DNA of 39,269 nt from Spirochaetia bacterium (GTDB lineage: Bacteria; Spirochaetota; Spirochaetia; Treponematales; Treponemataceae), in the NCBI GenBank assembly GCA_022773305.1, contig JALFAW010000068.1, positions 1-39,269 on the forward strand, read 5' to 3'. The notes under the pieces were generated by a model that searched no databases, was not told the origin of the DNA, and saw only the letters and a list, made by a program, of their open reading frames with translations. A program made the translations under genes and the position numbers. Below, one piece after another: positions 22,028 through 38,520 of the stretch (its first letter is position 1; every line of letters starts with the position of its first letter).

Positions 22028-23038
22028 CTACATACTTGCTGTTACTAAAACATATCTTGAATCTTTTGAAAGAATTTGTGGTATAGAATGATACAAAGTA
22101 ACTCCATCACCATCTTTATTAATTGCAACATTTAGTTCAGGATAATATTTTTCTTTAATTATTCTTATCTGCTCCAGTATGTAATTATAATTTGTTCTTT
22201 CTTGATTTTCATGACTTTTTTCTTTAACAGGCATAAATTGTTCTACAAGTGAGTTGCTTGGAATAAAAACAGAATCACCAGGTTTTAAACTGTTATTTCG
22301 ATAGGTAAGCCATGCATAAATATCCTTTCCTACAGCACTTGTAATTTTTTTATAAACCGAATAATTAATTGGAACAGAATGTTTACGTGAAAACTTAACA
22401 AAAGCTGGTGACAATTTCATCGAAATGCAATATTGTTTACCCTCTTTTCCATCTTCTTTTAATTCAAGATACTGCATTCCTTCCATAAAAGGGATGATAC
22501 CAGTGGAAACTAAAGTTGCTTGAACTTTATCAGCTTTTAATTGTTCATCTGCTTCTAAAAGGTCTTTAAAAAGTGATTTTTGAACAATGGAAGTACGTTT
22601 TTCTTCAAAAACAAATGTCGATTTGGAAAAATATTCAAGCTGTTCTTTTATTTCGTTACTTCTGCCTGCTGAAAGCTGCATTTCTTTAAGAAGATGACGA
22701 ATTGAATTGTATTGAACCATAACACTTCCATCATCAGCACTTGGTTTTTCCACTACTGCATGTGTTGTCAAAATGGTGAGCAAAAGTCTCCCATATTTAC
22801 CAAATGGCACTTTGTCGGCTGTACTTGCAAGACTAAGAGAAATATTATTATATTTTCGTTTAAAAATATTTTTGTTTACATCTTTTAATGGCAAAGAAGC
22901 TGATATGAATGGACTAGAAAGAAAACTCCTCAATCGTTTTTCAGGGTCATCTTCAATAAGAGCTGGAAGATTTTCGTTTGTCAATTCATCCAGAGCACTT
23001 TTACCAAAAAGTTCTTCATTGTTAATAATGTTTTCCAT
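22028..23038 (-). CDS. repA: Plasmid replication initiator, RepA family
   Basis: 336 aa. The stretch VPFGKYGRLLLTILTTHAV (about 77-95), then SIRHLLKEMQLSAGRSNEIKEQLEYFSKSTFVFEE and the later ISMKLSPAFVKFSRKHSVPINYSVYKKI with DIYAWLTYRN, match the 'plasmid encoded RepA protein' family (RepA_C), winged-helix initiators that bind iterons. No signal peptide or membrane segment. It is the third gene of a parA / RHH / repA operon; its ATG follows the RHH stop by five bases, with GGGGAG overlapping the gap. An iteron-like sequence (22170-22186) lies inside its coding region. The initiator is intact, so the replicon may be functional. The family call is from motif memory. Confidence 0.85.
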   Translation of the reverse strand: MENIINNEELFGKSALDELTNENLPALIEDDPEKRLRSFLSSPFISASLPLKDVNKNIFKRKYNNISLSLASTADKVPFGKYGRLLLTILTTHAVVEKPSADDGSVMVQYNSIRHLLKEMQLSAGRSNEIKEQLEYFSKSTFVFEEKRTSIVQKSLFKDLLEADEQLKADKVQATLVSTGIIPFMEGMQYLELKEDGKEGKQYCISMKLSPAFVKFSRKHSVPINYSVYKKITSAVGKDIYAWLTYRNNSLKPGDSVFIPSNSLVEQFMPVKEKSHENQERTNYNYILEQIRIIKEKYYPELNVAINKDGDGVTLYHSIPQILSKDSRYVLVTASM

Positions 23039-23043
23039 CTCCC

Positions 23044-23406
23044 CTACCTGTTATTTTTTGTAATTAATCCTGCAGCATTAATTTCTACATTGCCACTTTT
23101 GATTTGCTGTTCCAGATAAAAACATGCAAGTTGAATTCCTTTTGAAAGTGTAATTCCGTAAGTAGCAAAAAAACCTTTTAACTGATTTTTGTTTTCTTCA
23201 GTTGTGCGGAAAATTATTTGAGTGTCTTTGATTGCAGTTTTTTTCTGAATAATCGGCGTTTGTAGACTGTTTTGACTATTTTGAAAAGGTGCTCCAGTTT
23301 GTATTTGATTGTTATCTTGATGCAGATTTTCTGATGTTCCATCTAAATACCTTAAATTTTCTGAAATATCTGGAGCTGAAGGTTTTTTCTTTTGTGATAC
23401 TGCCAT
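23044..23406 (-). CDS. Ribbon-helix-helix partition/regulatory protein
   Basis: 120 aa. Residues 1-70 are Q/N/P-rich and probably disordered. Residues about 71-112 (TQIIFRTTEENKNQLKGFFA, then TYGITLSKGIQLACFYL) have the strand-helix-helix pattern of ribbon-helix-helix DNA-binding proteins. In plasmids such small proteins sit next to ParA, bind the centromere and repress the par promoter (ParG or omega type), so it is the likely ParB-role partner. GGGAG is seven bases before the ATG. An exact inverted copy of the iteron variant AAATACAAACTGGAGCA lies inside the gene (23290-23306), in the region coding for the disordered part. Confidence 0.75.
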   Translation of the reverse strand: MAVSQKKKPSAPDISENLRYLDGTSENLHQDNNQIQTGAPFQNSQNSLQTPIIQKKTAIKDTQIIFRTTEENKNQLKGFFATYGITLSKGIQLACFYLEQQIKSGNVEINAAGLITKNNR

Positions 23407-23456
23407 TTATTATCTCCCTTTTTTGTGTTTTAAAAGTAAATCTTGTAAAAAATATG

Positions 23457-24212
23457 TTATTTTTCTTCGATAATTGCTTTCGAAATTTTATTTATTGCGT
23501 CCAATGTTATTTGTTTTGTTCCGTAAAGTTCCTGAACGAGAATTTGAGAACCTTGTGCTTTTTTGAATGCCTGATCAACTGGAAGCATAAACAAAGTGAA
23601 GTTTTTGTTCTCTTCAAATTGTGCTAGAAGTTGTGATTGCTGCTGAAGTCTGTCATCTTTGGAATTCAAAATTAATTTGTTAAAAACAGGTTCTTGAATA
23701 CGCATGTTTTTTTTGAGCGTATTAAGTGAATCTGCAAAAGTAACAAGACCGTCCGTACTGAAAATGTCGAGTTGTAAAACTGCGATTGCTTCGTTACTCG
23801 CTACAAGGCACATTTTTTCCAGAAGATTGAATGCTGGAGACGTATCAATGATAGTAAATTCAAAACCCATATTTTCAATTTCATCAAGAAGGTTTCTGAC
23901 ATAGAAGATTTTGTCACCAGTTGCGGTTTGTGAAAAGTCACGGAGGCTTCCACCAATTCCTGCTGTTGGCAGAATATAAAGATTTTCTACATGAGTTTTG
24001 CAGATTGCCTGTTCAAGATTTGCTTTGCCCAAAAGTACATCGGCAAATTCATATTCTACTTCAGGATATATCCAGCCTGAAGAATTTCCCTGAGGATCAG
24101 CGTCTATTAAAAGTGTTTTTTTGCCTGCGAGAGCCAGGTCTCCAGCAACAGAAACTGAAACTGAAGTTTTTCCTGTTCCACCTTTTTGAATAGCGAAAGT
24201 TATAGTTTTCAT
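23457..24212 (-). CDS. parA: Plasmid-type partition ATPase ParA
   Basis: 251 aa, a small ParA (type Ib size) without an N-terminal DNA-binding extension. It carries the deviant Walker A KGGTGKTS (residues 10-17, signature lysine K10), Walker A' LLIDADPQGNSSGW, and Walker B FTIIDTSPAF. ParA ATPases move plasmid copies over the nucleoid using a partner protein bound to a centromere. It is the first gene of the operon with the RHH protein and repA, under a consensus promoter at 24279-24307. GGAG precedes the ATG by six bases. The lack of an own operator-binding domain fits regulation by the RHH partner. Confidence 0.93.
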   Translation of the reverse strand: MKTITFAIQKGGTGKTSVSVSVAGDLALAGKKTLLIDADPQGNSSGWIYPEVEYEFADVLLGKANLEQAICKTHVENLYILPTAGIGGSLRDFSQTATGDKIFYVRNLLDEIENMGFEFTIIDTSPAFNLLEKMCLVASNEAIAVLQLDIFSTDGLVTFADSLNTLKKNMRIQEPVFNKLILNSKDDRLQQQSQLLAQFEENKNFTLFMLPVDQAFKKAQGSQILVQELYGTKQITLDAINKISKAIIEEK

Positions 24213-24244
24213 TTTATCTCCAAAAATTAAAATAAATTATTTTA

Positions 24245-24265
24245 GGGAGACAAAATAAGTCCCCC
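24245..24265 (-). promoter_or_regulatory. Hairpin in the parA leader
   Basis: GGGAGAC (24245-24251) and GTCCCCC (24259-24265) can pair (seven pairs, one G-U in the minus-strand RNA) around a seven-base loop. It lies 33 bases before the parA ATG, just after the predicted transcription start, next to a G-rich tract GGTGGGTGGGGG on the minus strand. It could slow early elongation or protect the mRNA end. Confidence 0.35.
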
Positions 24266-24278
24266 ACCCACCAAAAAT

Positions 24279-24307
24279 ATTATAATACGAATGTTATTAC
24301 GTGTCAA
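24279..24307 (-). promoter_or_regulatory. Promoter of the parA-RHH-repA operon
   Basis: On the minus strand: TTGACA (24302-24307), a 17-bp spacer, TATAAT (24279-24284). Both boxes are perfect consensus. The spacer contains one of the 12-bp repeats proposed to be the RHH protein's sites, so binding would block RNA polymerase and give self-regulation. Confidence 0.75.
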
Positions 24308-24388
24308 TTACAAAATGATAATAAAAAATACGAATGTAATAACAAAAAGAATGCAATAAGTATACAAAAGTATTAACAATGTAGTAAC
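24289..24388 (+). repeat. Four 12-bp repeats, candidate par operator/centromere
   Basis: GAATGTTATTAC (24289-24300), GAATGTAATAAC (24332-24343), GAATGCAATAAG (24349-24360) and CAATGTAGTAAC (24377-24388) share the consensus GAATGYAATAAC. The first lies within the parA promoter spacer, the others just upstream. ParA-RHH modules usually place direct repeats here that act as both operator and parS. Binding is inferred. Confidence 0.45.
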
Positions 24389-24403
24389 AAAAGTAACACG
24401 CTG

Positions 24404-24484
24404 AAATCTTCGTTTTGAGAGGGAAAATATTACTTTTTGATATATTAATTGAAAAAGCAGGTGAGGCTTTCAGAACGAAGATTT
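24404..24484. repeat. 11-bp inverted repeat upstream of the par operon
   Basis: AAATCTTCGTT at 24404-24414 and its exact complement AACGAAGATTT at 24474-24484, 59 bases apart. The spacing is too long for a terminator hairpin; it fits a protein-binding or centromere element. Confidence 0.5.
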
Positions 24485-24518
24485 GAGCGTTTGAGGGGAA
24501 ACTAACAACTTAAGAATA

Positions 24519-24596
24519 ACTGTATATACAAAGAGATTTAAAAGAATATAAATGTAAATACAAAAAGAATAAAAAAAATAAAATTGTATATACAGT
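24519..24596. repeat. Paired TGTATATACA palindromes
   Basis: ACTGTATATACAA (24519-24531) and TTGTATATACAGT (24584-24596) are exact complements, and each contains the 10-bp palindrome TGTATATACA. Two identical palindromic sites 65 bp apart are typical of a dimeric repressor operator with looping. The TetR regulator at 25357 is a candidate binder, but nothing links them directly. Confidence 0.5.
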
Positions 24597-24642
24597 AAGA
24601 TTTGTATGAGAAATTGTAGCTGAAAAAAATATATACCAATAT

Positions 24643-24701
24643 AAACCAAGGTCTGTCCCTGTTTTACAAGTTGATTTTAAAACAGGGACAGACCTTGGTT
24701 T
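24643..24701. repeat. Perfect 24-bp hairpin with GGTCTGTCCCT core
   Basis: Arms 24643-24666 and 24678-24701 are exact complements around an 11-base loop, and the right arm runs into T6. The arm carries the AAGGTCTGTCCCTG word shared with the arrays at 33.5-38.5 kb. It would work as a plus-strand terminator, or be an inverted pair of the repeat core. Confidence 0.75.
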
Positions 24702-24708
24702 TTTAAAT

Positions 24709-24810
24709 GGGGTACGACCTTAAAAAGGGGGACAGACCTCGTTTTGTAAATAGGGGTACGACCTTATTTGAATATTGTCCTTCTTTGAAATCAAGGTCTG
24801 TCCCCCTTTT
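24709..24810. repeat. Second inverted pair of the GGTCTGTCCC core plus a direct repeat
   Basis: A 17-bp exact inverted repeat (24723-24739 and 24794-24810, arm AAAAGGGGGACAGACCT) immediately follows the 24-bp hairpin. A 14-bp direct repeat, GGGGTACGACCTTA, occurs at 24709-24722 and 24753-24766. No gene lies in this stretch. Confidence 0.65.
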
Positions 24811-24828
24811 AAACTATTTTTGTTAAAG

Positions 24829-25242
24829 AAATATAAACTGGAGCAGAGTGATGATGAAAAAGGTTTAATAAATACAAACTGGAGCAGTCAAAAACTTTGT
24901 AGTTATTTGAAAATACAAACTGGAGCAGAGTAAAAGAACATAAATATAAAGTGGAGCAGGGCATAAAATATAAACTGGAGCATATTGTTTTTTGTGGTTA
25001 TGTCTGTAAATTTTTTGGTAGACAGAATCTAAAGTGTATAAAATTGTTAACAAATTTTGGGAAAATAAATATAAACTGGAGCAGTTGTTTGTGAGTTTTA
25101 TTGATGTGAAAATATAAAGTGGAGCAGTGTATGCTAATTTATTATTATTTTTTAGAATATACTCCGTTTATAAATATAAACTGGAGCAGGTAACTGTATA
25201 AAATTTTAAACATTATGAGAATTTGAAATATAAAGTGGAGCA
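24829..25242 (+). repeat. Main iteron array, nine copies
   Basis: Nine direct copies of the 17-bp iteron start at 24829, 24870, 24911, 24942, 24966, 25067, 25110, 25172 and 25226. They fall in two forms, AAATAYAAACTGGAGCA and AAATATAAAGTGGAGCA, differing at one central base. Start-to-start distances (41, 41, 31, 24, 101, 43, 62, 54) are mostly near whole helical turns, so RepA would bind mainly along one face. It lies upstream of the par-rep operon. Iterons serve both as origin and as copy-number control sites in this replicon type. No gene in 24213-25338. Confidence 0.85.
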
Positions 25243-25356
25243 TATTATCTTTATCTTTTTTATTTACAGAAAATTTGTTAATATATAGTTAGTTTGAAGT
25301 TTGCCTTGAATAGGAAATATTAACAGCCTGGTAAAAATTTGTTTCTGGTAATAATT

Positions 25357-25956
25357 ATGTTGAATAAGAATTCTACAAGAGAAAAAATATTAAAGTCTGC
25401 TTTGAATCTGTTTTCAGAAAAAGGTTATGATGGTGTAGGTGTTGATTTGATTGCTGAAAATTGCGGATTAAAAGGACCTTCCATTTATAAGCATTTTAAA
25501 GGAAAAGAAGAAATTCTTGATGTTTTGATTTCTAATCTAGAAGATTATTATAATGAAAAATTTGGATTTGAGCAAAATAATATAAAAATTCCTGATTCTA
25601 TGGATGAATTGGTTGCTAATGCTTTTGAACAAATTAATTTTACAATGAACGATGAATCAATAAAAAAAACGAGAAAACTTTTGACTCTTGAACAGTTTAG
25701 AAACAAAAAGATTGCAAAAATTGCTTCAACTCATATTTGTGAAGGAATTTCGAATTTATACTGTATTATATTTCAAAAAATGATGGATAAAAAAGTGATT
25801 AATAAAACTGATGCCAGAATGCTTTCTATTGAATTTGTTTATCCTGTTTCTATTTTAATTCAAACTTGTGACAGGGAACCTGAAAGAAAAGATGAAATTT
25901 TAGAAACCATTAAAAACTACTTTTGCCATTTTGCAAGGAAATATTCAGTTGATTGA
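25357..25956 (+). CDS. TetR-family transcriptional regulator
   Basis: 199 aa from the ATG at 25357 (MLNKNSTREKILK); an upstream in-frame TTG is less likely. Residues about 8-55 form the TetR helix-turn-helix: KILKSALNLFSEKGYDGVGVDLIAENCGLKGPSIYKHFKGKEEIL. The C-terminal ligand-binding domain is generic and gives no ligand. TetR proteins usually repress a neighbour and leave DNA when they bind a small molecule. It stands inside the replicon, between the main iteron array and a last iteron seven bases after its stop, so it seems to belong to the replicon. The palindromes at 24519-24596 are a possible operator. Confidence 0.85.
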   Translation: MLNKNSTREKILKSALNLFSEKGYDGVGVDLIAENCGLKGPSIYKHFKGKEEILDVLISNLEDYYNEKFGFEQNNIKIPDSMDELVANAFEQINFTMNDESIKKTRKLLTLEQFRNKKIAKIASTHICEGISNLYCIIFQKMMDKKVINKTDARMLSIEFVYPVSILIQTCDREPERKDEILETIKNYFCHFARKYSVD

Positions 25957-25962
25957 GAAAGA

Positions 25963-25979
25963 AAATATAAAGTGGAGCA
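25963..25979 (+). repeat. Outlying iteron
   Basis: AAATATAAAGTGGAGCA, an exact copy of the second iteron form, seven bases after the TetR stop and about 720 bp beyond the main array. It marks the right edge of the replicon. Confidence 0.8.
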
Positions 25980-26027
25980 GGGTAGAAAAAAAGTTTTGTT
26001 TTTATAGAATTTTCTTATTGGTAGATG

Positions 26028-26150
26028 TGCAAGGGTATGGAGCAGTTGCGAAGCAAGCCACTGGACTGAACGAGCGAAGCGAAGTGAGGGAAGCGGCCGA
26101 GGGTTACCGAGCTGCGTAACACCCGACCCCGAAGGGGTTGCACCCTATAT
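26028..26150. repeat. GCGAAGCGAGGGAAGCGG-type extragenic element
   Basis: Contains GCGAAGC, CCACTGGACTGA and GAAGTGAGGGAAGCGG, words shared with the element at 34184-34360. It can form hairpins: GGGTTAC with GTAACaCCC (about 26101-26124) and CCCC-GAA-GGGG just after. It lies directly before the DUF2130 gene. A frame open through it is a by-product, not part of that gene. Confidence 0.55.
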
Positions 26151-33529: not shown

Positions 33530-34177
33530 CAAGAGGTCTGTCCCCATTTAACACAATATGTATACGAGCCAGAGACAGATCTTGAATTAAAAACTACGTT
33601 TTTTCTGAGTTTTGGTTGCAAAGGAAAATAAACTTTTATGTGAAAGAAGAATGTAATCAAAACTCGCAGCACGTGCCAAACAAAATGTACGTTGAAATGC
33701 AAATTTTTGGCACGTGCAGGGACAGACCTTGTTTTAAACAAAGCTAACACTGAGTTTTTGCAAAAGTGGAATTTCGACATAGAAAGCTAGGTGCTGGAAA
33801 TGCAAAAACTCACGGCTCGTGCAGACAATACGTACGTTGGTATTTCAGTTATCAGCACGAGCCAAGGACAGATATTGAATTAAAACCTACGCTTTTTCTG
33901 AGTTTTGGTTACAAAGGAAAATAAATTTTTATGTGGAAGAAGAATGTAACCAAAACTCGCAGCACGTGCCAAACAAAATGTACGTTGAAATGCAAATTTT
34001 TGGCACGTGCAGGGACAGATCTTGTTTTAAACAAAGCTAACACTGAGTTTTTGCAAAAGTGGAATTTCGACATAGAAAGCTAGGTGCTGGAAATGCAAAA
34101 ACTCACGGCTCGTGCAGACAATACGTACGTTGGTATTTCAGTTATCAACACGAGCCAGGGACAGACCTTGAATTATA
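33530..34177 (-). repeat. Structured repeat array 1: two 293-bp dimeric units
   Basis: Two nearly identical 293-bp units (33574-33866 and 33867-34159) plus flanking half motifs. Each unit contains two similar halves of about 147 bp. Every half has a GGTCTGTCCC-type core (seen here as its complement), a stem with GCACGTGCC/GGCACGTGC or GGCTCGTGC/GCACGAGCC, and a second stem with GAGTTTTGG/CCAAAACTC or GAGTTTTTGC/GCAAAAACTC. Orientation is opposite to the arrays at 36354 and 38240. Open frames through it are by-products. Confidence 0.85.
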
Positions 34178-34183
34178 GAAAAT

Positions 34184-34360
34184 GTGGCAAGGATAGTAGC
34201 CCCTGCGAAGCAGTCCACTGGACTGAGCGAAGCGAGGGAAGCGGATGAGCGATAGCGAAGGGCGAATAGCCTGTTTTTTGGTTGCTTTGGTTCCTGAAAA
34301 TCAGTTGTTGAGTGGTGCCAGATTAAATTGAAGGAAGCAAAGCAACCAAAAAGCCACCCA
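34184..34360 (-). repeat. Longer relative of the 147-bp A/B repeat
   Basis: It runs from GTGGCAAGGAT to AAAAAGCCACCCA, the complements of the right (ATCCTTGCCAC) and left (GGGTGGCTTTTTG) ends of copies A and B, so it is the same family in inverse orientation with a longer centre. The centre includes CCACTGGACTGAGCGAAGCG and AGGGAAGCGG, shared with the element at 26028. No gene is seen in 33257-34503. Confidence 0.65.
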
Positions 34361-35386: not shown

Positions 35387-36352
35387 ATGTTACAAGACGA
35401 TGGTAAGAAAATTGTGTCAAAAGAAAGGGCGGGCAGAAACAGAACTGTCACTTTGCATCCTGACGAAGTAGATTTTTTAAAATCGCATATCATTACGCCA
35501 GATAAAATTGATGGTAATAATATTATTAATCAGACAATAAATGGTGATTTATTATCAGTGATTGATTTGATTCCAGATGAATTTGCTGATTTGATTATTA
35601 TTGATCCTCCATACAATCTGACGAAAAACTTTAATGGTCTGCATTTTAATTCACGAGCAGAAACAAAATATGATGATTATCTTGCTTCATGGTTTCCAAA
35701 AGTTTGCAAAAAATTAAAATCAAATGGTTCTCTTTATATGTGTGGTGACTGGAAATGTACTTCGTCATTGCAGCGTGCTATTGAAAAGGAACTTACAATC
35801 TTGAACAGAATTACATGGCAGAGAGAAAAAGGGCGGGGTGCTAAAACAAACTGGAAAAATGGTATGGAAGATATTTGGTTTGCGGTAAAAAATCCAAATG
35901 ATTATTATTTTGATGTCGAAGCTGTGAAAATGAAACGCAAAGTGATAGCACCTTACAAAGTTGACGGAATTCCAAAAGACTGGAAGGAAGAGGATGATGG
36001 AAATTTCAGATTAACTTATCCATCAAATTTTTGGGATGACATTTCCATTCCTTTTTGGTCAATGCCTGAGAATACTGATCATCCAACCCAAAAACCAGAA
36101 AAATTGTATGCAAAATTGATTTTGGCATCATCTAAACCTGGAGCAATGGTTTTTGATCCTTTTTTAGGAAGTGGAACTGCAAGTGTTGTTGCAAAAAAAC
36201 TTGGTAGAAACTACTGCGGAATAGAAATGAATGAAGAATATTGTCTTTTGTGTCAAAAACGTCTTCAAATGGCAGAAAAAGATTGTTCTATCCAAGGTTA
36301 CAAAGACGGTGTTTTTTGGGAACGGAATTCACTGAAATTTCAAAATAAATGA
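35387..36352 (+). CDS. Orphan DNA methyltransferase (N6-A/N4-C, beta-type order)
   Basis: 321 aa. Motif IV IIIDPPYNLTKNF (DPPYN about 73-77) comes before the SAM-binding motif I VFDPFLGSGTASVVA (about 255-269), the beta arrangement; HPTQKPEKL lies between them. These enzymes methylate adenine N6 or cytosine N4. The first ATG (35378) is too close to AAAGGA; the ATG at 35387 has it ten bases away, so I use that. No endonuclease gene is visible, so it is an orphan that may act in regulation or protection. It sits between the repressor/MFS remnant and array 2. Confidence 0.9.
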   Translation: MLQDDGKKIVSKERAGRNRTVTLHPDEVDFLKSHIITPDKIDGNNIINQTINGDLLSVIDLIPDEFADLIIIDPPYNLTKNFNGLHFNSRAETKYDDYLASWFPKVCKKLKSNGSLYMCGDWKCTSSLQRAIEKELTILNRITWQREKGRGAKTNWKNGMEDIWFAVKNPNDYYFDVEAVKMKRKVIAPYKVDGIPKDWKEEDDGNFRLTYPSNFWDDISIPFWSMPENTDHPTQKPEKLYAKLILASSKPGAMVFDPFLGSGTASVVAKKLGRNYCGIEMNEEYCLLCQKRLQMAEKDCSIQGYKDGVFWERNSLKFQNK

Positions 36353-36353
36353 T

Positions 36354-36814
36354 AGACAAGGTCTGTCCCTGGCTCGTGTTATTAGCCTGGCACACCAATG
36401 AACATTTAGTTAACACGAGCCGAGAGTTTTGGCGTATGTTTTTTATTTTCTTTTGCTGGAATTGTAATTTTGCCAAAACTCAGAAAAGCATGCGGTTTGA
36501 AAACGAGGTTTGTCCCTGGCTCGTGTTATTAGCTTGGCACACCAATGAACATTTAGTTAACACGAGCCGAGAGTTTTGGCTTTTGTTTTTTATCTTCTTT
36601 TGCTGGAATTGTAATTTTGCCAAAACTCAGGAAAGCGTGCGGTTTGAAAACAAGGTTTGTCCCTGGCTCGTGTTGTTAGCTTGGCACACCAATGAACATT
36701 TAGTTAACACGAGCCGAGAGTTTTGGCATTTGTTTTTTATCTTCTTTTGCTGGAATTGTAATTTTGCCAAAACTCAGAAAAGCGTGTGGTTTGAAAACAA
36801 GGTCTGTCCCTGTT
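36354..36814 (+). repeat. Structured repeat array 2: three 147-bp units
   Basis: The core GGTYTGTCCCT starts at 36360, 36507, 36654 and 36801, exactly 147 bp apart, so three full units plus a closing core. Each unit has an 11-bp stem, GGCTCGTGTTA/TAACACGAGCC, around a loop of about 30 bases, then a 10-bp stem, GAGTTTTGGC/GCCAAAACTC. The units are almost identical, implying recent expansion. Because 147 is divisible by three, a long frame stays open through it; I do not regard it as a gene. Confidence 0.9.
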
Positions 36815-36819
36815 TTGTG

Positions 36820-36848
36820 TTGAAAAACCTAAAACTTTGGGTTATATT
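36820..36848 (+). promoter_or_regulatory. Promoter of the 155-aa gene
   Basis: TTGAAA (36820-36825), 17-bp spacer, TATATT (36843-36848). The ATG (36855) lies six bases after the -10 box, so the message would be leaderless, in agreement with the missing Shine-Dalgarno. Much of it resembles an internal piece of the same gene at 37022-37046. Confidence 0.45.
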
Positions 36849-36854
36849 TTATAT

Positions 36855-37322
36855 ATGAGTAAAAAGACAACACAAATTTACACTTCCATTGATAATCTGT
36901 TTGAAATCCAGAAAAAACTTTTGGACATCAAAACAAACTTGCAGATGACGAAAATCACAACTGATTCAGAAAACTGCTTTCATGAAATGGATGAACTTAT
37001 CTTTCATATGGAACAAAATCTCAAAAACCTAAAGTTTTGGGTTACATCACTTTATGAACAGAATGGAAAGTCCACAAGTGCTGCAAAGAAGATTGCAAGT
37101 AAACAAAATGGAAAAAAAGGGGGCAGACCTCCAAAAAAAATCACTCATGCGAAGCAAATGCTTGCCCAAATTGAAATCCATCTTTCCGATATTGACCATA
37201 ATCTGAAAATGAATGATAATATGGAAGAAATTGAACAATTACAGACAGAAAAAGAAATTCTTTTACAAAATCAAAAAGAGTTTCAACAAATTCTTTTATC
37301 AGAAAAAAATAGGAATGACTAA
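36855..37322 (+). CDS. Hypothetical protein with AT-hook-like segment
   Basis: 155 aa (MSKKTTQIYTSIDN...). Mostly amphipathic helix: an N-terminal helical region (about 10-75), a basic segment AAKKIASKQNGKKGGRPPKK (about 75-95) with a GRP core as in AT-hooks, and a charged coiled coil to the end. No signal peptide. It may bind A/T-rich DNA. A TTG six codons upstream is open but the ATG fits the promoter. The stop is three bases before the patatin ATG, so the two are co-transcribed. Family unknown to me; possibly phage- or plasmid-derived. Confidence 0.7.
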   Translation: MSKKTTQIYTSIDNLFEIQKKLLDIKTNLQMTKITTDSENCFHEMDELIFHMEQNLKNLKFWVTSLYEQNGKSTSAAKKIASKQNGKKGGRPPKKITHAKQMLAQIEIHLSDIDHNLKMNDNMEEIEQLQTEKEILLQNQKEFQQILLSEKNRND

Positions 37323-38204: not shown

Positions 38205-38520
38205 ACAGGGACAGATCTTAATTTTTTTTAATCTATAAAACAAGGGCTGTCCCTGCACGTGCCAAAAATTTGCATTTCAACGTACATTTTATTTAGCACG
38301 TGCTGCGAGTTTTGGCTTATTGAAATAAACTTAAAAAAATAAATCAACTTTTGCTAAAACTCAATAATTATTTGGTTTAAAATCAAGGGGTGTCCTTGCA
38401 CGTGCTAAAAACTTAAACACCACAGAAAATTTTGTTTGCACGTGCTGCGAGTTTTTCTTAACGCTTCGCTGAAAAACTCAGGGAAAATCTTGTTTAAAAT
38501 CAAGGGGTGTCCCTAAATTT
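38205..38520 (+). repeat. Structured repeat array 3, diverged
   Basis: A complement of the core (GGGACAGATCTTA, about 38209) is followed by plus-strand cores GGCTGTCCCTG (38245), GGGGTGTCCTTG (about 38387) and GGGGTGTCCCT (about 38504), spaced 143 and 117 bp. Stems: GCACGTGCCAAA with TTTAGCACGTGC, GCACGTGC pairs in the second unit, and GAGTTTTGGC/GCTAAAACTC. Same family and orientation as array 2 but older-looking. Nothing else is visible in 38178-38601 apart from the relic at 38538. Confidence 0.75.

What the first reader, a model, noticed from the sequence alone, without database searches (positions are those of the whole stretch)
36354..36814. Tandem array with exact 147-bp period and two conserved stem-loops per unit
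Three nearly identical units each have GGTYTGTCCCT, an 11-bp stem (GGCTCGTGTTA) and a 10-bp stem (GAGTTTTGGC). The loop lengths and period are fixed exactly. It matches no repeat class I know: not CRISPR, not attC, not simple REP. It may encode a structured RNA or be a recombinase or transposase substrate.
Basis: seen in the sequence. Interest (0 to 1): 0.75.

Follow-up and report, generated by a model that had tools for sequence, protein, structure and literature searches.

The report
Two-hairpin repeats between transposase end motifs
The tandem repeat is real; it is a small mobile-looking DNA module, made of two conserved hairpins, that sits between copies of the short end-sequence flanking an unusual single-strand-DNA transposase in gut Treponema, and it gives a concrete handle on what that little-studied class of transposases moves.

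Summary
In detail: three 147-bp units (95-97% identical) at 36356-36812, each with an 11-bp and a 10-bp stem. The array is one of three in the window. The genome has 642 near-exact AAGGTCTGTCCC motifs (control 6). A unit is a 12-bp motif plus a ~135-bp two-hairpin module. Stems are kept by compensatory changes in 112 distinct sequences from four species plus orphans (12 of 20 pairs; 0/500 shuffles). G.U and A.C wobbles are equally rare, which weakly favours a DNA over an RNA constraint.

The motif is the inverted terminal repeat of a Y1/HUH transposase gene in the same genome, of the RAYT/TIRYT kind. Homologues elsewhere mostly carry CTGTCCC next to the gene, with a 4-nt tag that differs by clade. 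All four genomes with many units encode this transposase (4/4 against 18/196 others). Related species show motif-only sites where this genome has units, precise to the motif.

Best reading: non-autonomous two-hairpin elements using the TIRYT motif as end and landing site, stacked head to tail. Complication: the module also occurs without the motif, inside a separate 216-bp MITE and one GC-rich repeat. Mobilisation by this transposase is inferred, not shown. New variant of a known kind.

The parts
36356..36812 (+). Tandem array, three 147-bp units plus closing motif
36358..36369 (+). Motif AAGGTCTGTCCC opening unit 1
36371..36481 (+). Two-hairpin core, unit 1
   Evidence: covariance model R1, 105.9 bits
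36505..36516 (+). Motif GAGGTTTGTCCC opening unit 2
36518..36628 (+). Two-hairpin core, unit 2
   Evidence: R1, 107.5 bits
36652..36663 (+). Motif AAGGTTTGTCCC opening unit 3
36665..36775 (+). Two-hairpin core, unit 3
   Evidence: R1, 110.7 bits
36799..36810 (+). Closing motif AAGGTCTGTCCC, followed by TGTTTT; this end lines up with the motif-only site of relative G257
33564..34175 (-). Second array, four cores alternating in two sequence types (33607-33718, 33752-33863, 33900-34011, 34045-34156)
38242..38513 (+). Third array: one long-form core (38254-38362) and one short-form core (38397-38479), motif variants AAGGGCTGTCCC and AAGGGGTGTCCC
24648..24804 (.). Motif-only cluster (four copies in both orientations) without cores, interleaved with variant AAGGTCGTACCC

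Best explanation
Each unit is a non-autonomous mobile module of about 135 bp (T, hairpin 1, 2-3 nt, hairpin 2, ~23-nt tail) lying between direct copies of AAGGTCTGTCCC, the end motif of a multicopy TIRYT-type Y1/HUH single-strand transposase encoded elsewhere in the same genome. Proposed mechanism: in single-stranded DNA the hairpins fold and the transposase recognises the motif and cuts at its end (CCC|T or CCCC|T). The segment 'T-hairpins-tail-motif' is then rejoined at the end of another motif copy. The motif is regenerated on both sides, so units accumulate head to tail at motif sites. Homologous recombination or slippage between copies then changes the unit number. Shown: anatomy, covariation, motif on both sides of most sampled units, the motif as the transposase gene's inverted ends, the genome-level association, and unit presence/absence precise to the motif. 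Inferred: that this enzyme does the cutting, the cut position, and that DNA rather than RNA is the folded form.
For: Motif 642 copies against 6 control. Y1_Tnp gene (Pfam 58.6 bits, cut-off 23) at G000:C227 has the motif inverted 78 nt upstream and 74 nt downstream; at least four places in the genome share its 3' end up to this motif and then diverge. Among 35 homologues with complete flanks, 24 have an upstream and 21 a downstream CTGTCCC in inverted arrangement, 15 both; the 4-nt tag differs by clade. Multicopy units occur in 4 of 200 genus genomes, all with the transposase (4/4 against 18/196, p 1e-4). 87 of 111 sampled cores have the motif on both sides in the same orientation, 104 on at least one. 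Covariation: 95.5% of cells paired, 129 double-change cells, 0/500 shuffles. Near-empty sites: the window locus in G257 has two motifs but no units, and in more distant G212 the sequence after the same gene shows neither; L087 15238-15750 against G257 lacks two single 147-bp units exactly at motifs; L082 has 2 units where G255 has 4; L075 has four motifs where G257 has five units. G212 arrays also hold a unit unrelated in sequence but with the same two-hairpin layout. In G073 the genome's only two exact motifs bound its single unit.
Against: The module also occurs without the motif: inside a 216-bp MITE with other terminal repeats (more than 20 copies in this genome), inside a GC-rich repeat, and as a motif-free tandem array, so the motif is not strictly required for it to be carried or amplified. 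Many loci were fetched by the motif, so the 87/111 figure is biased upward. Presence/absence between direct 11-bp repeats can also arise by slippage or deletion. About 18 genomes have the transposase but no units. No biochemical, transcript or excision data.
Confidence: 0.55

Rival explanations
1. The two-hairpin module is an independent mobile or selfish unit with its own unknown mobiliser, captured by several vehicles (TIRYT motif sites, the 216-bp MITE, GC-rich repeats). The tandem arrays then arise passively by recombination or slippage between the motif repeats.
For: The same module ends (5' T|GGCTCG, 3' TTTACAATT|) occur in motif arrays, in the MITE and in the GC-rich repeat; in the last two the module replaces half or most of a small palindrome. 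A motif-free tandem array exists. Orphan copies sit in genomes without the transposase.
Against: The MITE-borne copies are near-identical, so one capture explains them. Sequence-diverse units are otherwise found at motifs. Multicopy genomes all have the transposase. Motif-free contexts number only a handful.
Confidence: 0.27
2. The unit encodes a structured regulatory or processing RNA, amplified in tandem.
For: Two covarying stems and a conserved loop segment around CACACCAAYG. Motif clusters prefer divergent intergenic regions, i.e. sites upstream of genes (13/24 against 1/19).
Against: No Rfam match of any weight. G.U and A.C wobbles are equally frequent in stems (18 and 17), not the asymmetry expected of RNA. 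Both strands fold about equally. Unit number varies freely between close species.
Confidence: 0.1
3. BIME-like architectural repeats binding a nucleoid or topoisomerase protein, with position and number selected by the host.
For: Intergenic placement (10 of 121 motifs inside ORFs of 120 aa or more, in sequence that is 81% ORF) and clustering.
Against: Absent from nearly all congeners (190 of 200 genomes). Copy number and cargo differ at orthologous sites of close species.
Confidence: 0.05

Closest known systems
TIRYT / TIRtron (TIR-associated tyrosine transposases, Di Nocera et al. 2013, PMC3733652; TnpAY1 subclass 2.1 in PMC6006769)
   Same: Y1/HUH gene of about 240 aa flanked by short inverted repeats; published TIR consensus GGGGWSAS is matched by GGGGACAG here; TIR copies dispersed and clustered in the genome.
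   Different: Hundreds of copies; direct-repeat arrays carrying a covarying two-hairpin module; Y motif YILQNP instead of YIELNP or Y[IV]HLNP; a clade-dependent 4-nt tag in front of an invariant CTGTCCC. Neither held paper describes such cargo, and PMC6006769 reports no REP-like structures near subclass 2.1 genes.
REP/BIME/REPIN repeats and their RAYT (TnpAREP)
   Same: High-copy intergenic repeats with hairpins associated with a Y1 transposase gene; tandem and inverted clusters.
   Different: No GTAG-headed 20-65-nt palindrome; the motif is not itself a hairpin; divergent intergenic regions are preferred, whereas REPs favour unidirectional and convergent ones (PMC3733652).
IS200/IS605 elements and their non-autonomous two-hairpin derivatives
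   Same: Two hairpins per unit on one strand, proposed single-strand processing.
   Different: Longer stems and loops; transposase has Y..NP rather than Y...Q; the unit is bounded by direct copies of the motif that ends the transposase gene in inverted orientation.

Membership tests
TIRYT / TIRtron | Y1/HUH transposase gene flanked by inverted terminal repeats | tested here: met
   Pfam Y1_Tnp over cut-off; inverted motif on both sides
TIRYT / TIRtron | TIR fits GGGGWSAS | tested here: met
   Downstream TIR reads GGGGACAG in inverse orientation; upstream copies read AGGGACAG, 7 of 8
TIRYT / TIRtron | Family of TIR copies elsewhere in the genome | tested here: met
   642 against 6 control
TIRYT / TIRtron | C-terminal HTH domain (Bac_DnaA_C, HTH_23 or HTH_28) and Y motif YIELNP or Y[IV]HLNP of subclass 2.1 | tested here: inconclusive
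   No HTH hit in Pfam for the C-terminal 66 aa; Y motif is YILQNP, closer to subclass 2.7, but length 248 and the SS tail fit 2.1
REP/RAYT (REPtron) | Class 2 TnpAREP core with Y..NP | tested here: met
   YILQNP, NHIH; NCBIfam REP_Tyr_transpos matches at 55 bits, below its cut-off of 80
REP/RAYT (REPtron) | Flanking palindromic REP headed by GTAG or GTRG | tested here: not met
   Motif AGGTCTGTCCC, no GTAG-headed palindrome in the gene's flanks
IS200/IS605 | Transposase with Y...Q signature, about 150 aa | tested here: not met
   248 aa, YILQNP; NCBIfam IS200 22.7 bits, cut-off 55
Integron attC | R'' and R' boxes (RYYYAAC ... GTTRRRY) | tested here: not met
   Neither box in any of the three units
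CRISPR | Short repeats separated by unique spacers | tested here: not met
   The whole 147 bp repeats at 95% identity
Known structured RNA (Rfam 15) | Match at gathering score | tested here: not met

The most novel reading that the evidence does not exclude
A TIRYT transposase uses its own end motif as a dedicated landing site and builds cassette-like head-to-tail arrays of hairpin modules at conserved motif sites, with a 4-nt tag in front of CTGTCCC acting as a lineage-specific address; the two-hairpin layout, not the sequence, is what is recognised.
Probability: 0.3. Interest if true: 0.78.

Novelty: new variant of a known kind. Interest (0 to 1): 0.56.

Why it matters
TIRYT-type Y1 transposases are widespread, but the two surveys read here describe only short flanking inverted repeats and no defined substrate or cargo. 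Here is a genome family in which the end motif is present hundreds of times, a structured cargo with proven covariation lies between motif copies, related species show near-empty sites, and the motif's first four letters differ with the enzyme's clade. That gives direct in vitro substrates and a test of end and target specificity.

Tried and rejected
Literature search for the motif string: only unrelated primers. Treponema with tyrosine transposase: no paper. Known RNA: none. attC and CRISPR: excluded. Coding: ORF 36349-36858 spans the array only because 147 is divisible by 3; other units of the family have lengths not divisible by 3. Plasmids: no match. Viral contigs: four chance matches without arrays. 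Matches outside Spirochaetes in the genome scan: the four sampled had no motif family. Other Y1 genes of the genome (C177, C12, C58, C209) have no motif near them. No structure prediction of the transposase was made, because its loci came from a tool whose sequences are not among those admitted.

Full report
What is there. The array at 36356-36812 is exactly as described: three 147-bp units, 94.6-96.6% identical, each opening with AAGGTYTGTCCC (first letter G... in unit 2), then an 11-bp stem with a 29-nt loop, a 2-nt gap, a 10-bp stem with a 38-nt loop and a 23-nt tail, and a fourth motif closing the array. Nine of ten variable positions are outside the stems. Two sister arrays lie nearby, 33564-34175 on the minus strand with two alternating unit types, and 38242-38513 with one long and one short unit; a motif-only cluster lies at 24648-24804.

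Genome scale. AAGGTCTGTCCC with up to one mismatch occurs 642 times in the 3.1-Mb genome, against 6 for the reversed control. In 293 kb examined, same-orientation spacings cluster at 18-48, 112-119 and 142-150 bp. The two longer classes are the same two-hairpin unit with a short (GAGTTTTTYTTAACGCTTCGCTRAAAAACTC) or a long second hairpin.

Structure. A covariance model (R1) gave 114 matches at E below 1e-8 from the window genome, three relatives and single orphans. The relatives are G255 (the contigs of CAMBMW01), G257 (CAMEET01) and G212 (JALEPQ01), all uncultured Treponema or Spirochaetia assemblies. On 112 distinct sequences 95.5% of cells are standard pairs, 12 of 20 pairs show double changes, 129 cells are compensatory, and no shuffle of 500 reaches this; sliding the partner by one to three columns destroys the signal. 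That alignment was fitted to the structure; the MAFFT alignment of 14 units gives the same answer. Interior G.U and A.C mismatches are equally rare, 18 and 17. RNA folding would favour G.U on one strand, so this leans weakly towards a DNA constraint.

The transposase. Pfam Y1_Tnp finds several genes in the genome. One, at C227, 248 aa, has the motif in inverted orientation 78 nt upstream and 74 nt downstream. Three further contig ends carry the same 3' end and the same ~75 bp up to GAGGTCTGTCCCC, then diverge, so the gene is repeated and its end is the motif. Homologues in the family mostly carry a CTGTCCC motif close by: of 35 with full flanks 24 have it upstream and 21 downstream in inverted arrangement, 15 on both sides. 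The preceding four letters differ by clade: AGGT in the own clade, mostly GGGT in the next, AAGG/AGGG, ATCC/TTCC, TACT and TGCT/AGCT further out (descriptive, tags assigned by hand, no shuffle control).

Association. In 145 family genomes, five or more exact AGGTCTGTCCC occur only in genomes with this transposase (4 of 18 against 0 of 127). In 200 genus genomes the unit is multicopy in four, all with the transposase (4/4 against 18/196, p 1e-4). Relatedness is not corrected for. Orphan single units occur in a few genomes without it. In G073 the only two exact motifs of the genome bound the single unit; that contig is only 4.3 kb, so contamination cannot be excluded.

Comparison of orthologous sites. 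After the window's methyltransferase gene, G257 (about 90% identical flanks) has an inverted pair of motifs and no unit; in G212 (75%) the ~280 bp shown after the same gene have no motif and no unit; G255 has the array, cut by a contig end. At L087 15238-15750, two single units are absent from G257, each exactly between what would be one motif. At L082 there are 2 short units where G255, 97-98% identical, has 4. At L075 there are four bare motifs where G257 has five units. So motif sites are shared and their cargo turns over. Gain and loss cannot be told apart from these data alone. In G212 some array units are unrelated in sequence but have the same layout, two adjacent hairpins then a tail, z -5.2.

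Complication. In this genome and in G255 the module also sits without the motif inside a second multicopy element: a 216-bp MITE with TIR CAGGGCAAACGCATTATAA and apparent target duplications. Empty copies read GGGGCTGCCGCGAGAGCGGCATTATAATAGTTTC; filled copies read GGGGCTGCCGC-TGGCTCG...TTTACAATT-ATAGTTTC. A GC-rich repeat at G000:C128 carries the module with the same ends in place of a small palindrome. C55 has a tandem array without the motif. The module thus has ends of its own, and the motif is its commonest but not its only setting.

Mechanism. E. coli TnpAREP cuts single-stranded DNA at C|T next to the hairpin, and Marinomonas TnpAREP also at CA (PMC8266576). Here the motif is always followed by a pyrimidine: T in 77 of 122 cases, CT or CCT in 22, CA in 17. 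Cuts at the ends of two successive direct motifs would release T-hairpins-tail-motif; joining it after another motif regenerates the motif on both sides and stacks units head to tail. This explains direct orientation, mixed unit types in one array and motif-precise differences. It is inferred; no step is shown biochemically.

Filing. It works like a REP/RAYT or IS200-derived non-autonomous element. The transposase fits the TIRYT kind by flanking TIRs and the GGGGWSAS consensus (PMC3733652), but not by its Y motif, and no C-terminal HTH was detected. REP membership fails (no GTAG-headed palindrome). attC, CRISPR and known RNA families fail. Hence: new variant of a known kind.

Noticed in passing
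window 22028-25979: RepA_C-type protein, ParA-type ATPase and at least eight direct 15-bp iterons ATATAAASTGGAGCA; 9 of 11 copies in the genome lie in this contig. Looks like an iteron replication origin, so the contig may be a plasmid or integrated replicon.
   Followed up: partly
L038 (G000:C209): An adenine-specific methylase-like ORF of about 1040-1200 aa with a complete-looking Y1/HUH domain (HLH and Y..NN) inserted in frame just before the NPPY motif, bounded by GLKSL peptide repeats.
   Followed up: partly
L306-L325, L292-L299: 216-bp MITE with TIR CAGGGCAAACGCATTATAA, dozens of copies in G000 and G255, about 212-bp relatives in G212; some copies hold the two-hairpin module.
   Followed up: partly
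window 24710, 24754 and elsewhere: Second motif variant AAGGTCGTACCC: 42 copies with up to one mismatch against 7 control, several of them in the same clusters as AAGGTCTGTCCC.
   Followed up: no
window 26025-26090 and 34182-34280: GC-rich repeat GCGAAGCRGTCCACTGGACTGA...GCGAAGCGA; similar GC-rich segments lie between motif copies in relatives, e.g. L096 and L102.
   Followed up: no
20 contigs of G000 plus window: Motif clusters occur in 13 of 24 divergent but 1 of 19 convergent intergenic regions (p 8e-4), opposite to the published preference of REPs.
   Followed up: partly
L164, L165, L167: Orphan short units in three Treponema genomes sit at one end of a shared repeat of about 430 bp, 91-93% identical between genomes.
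   Followed up: no
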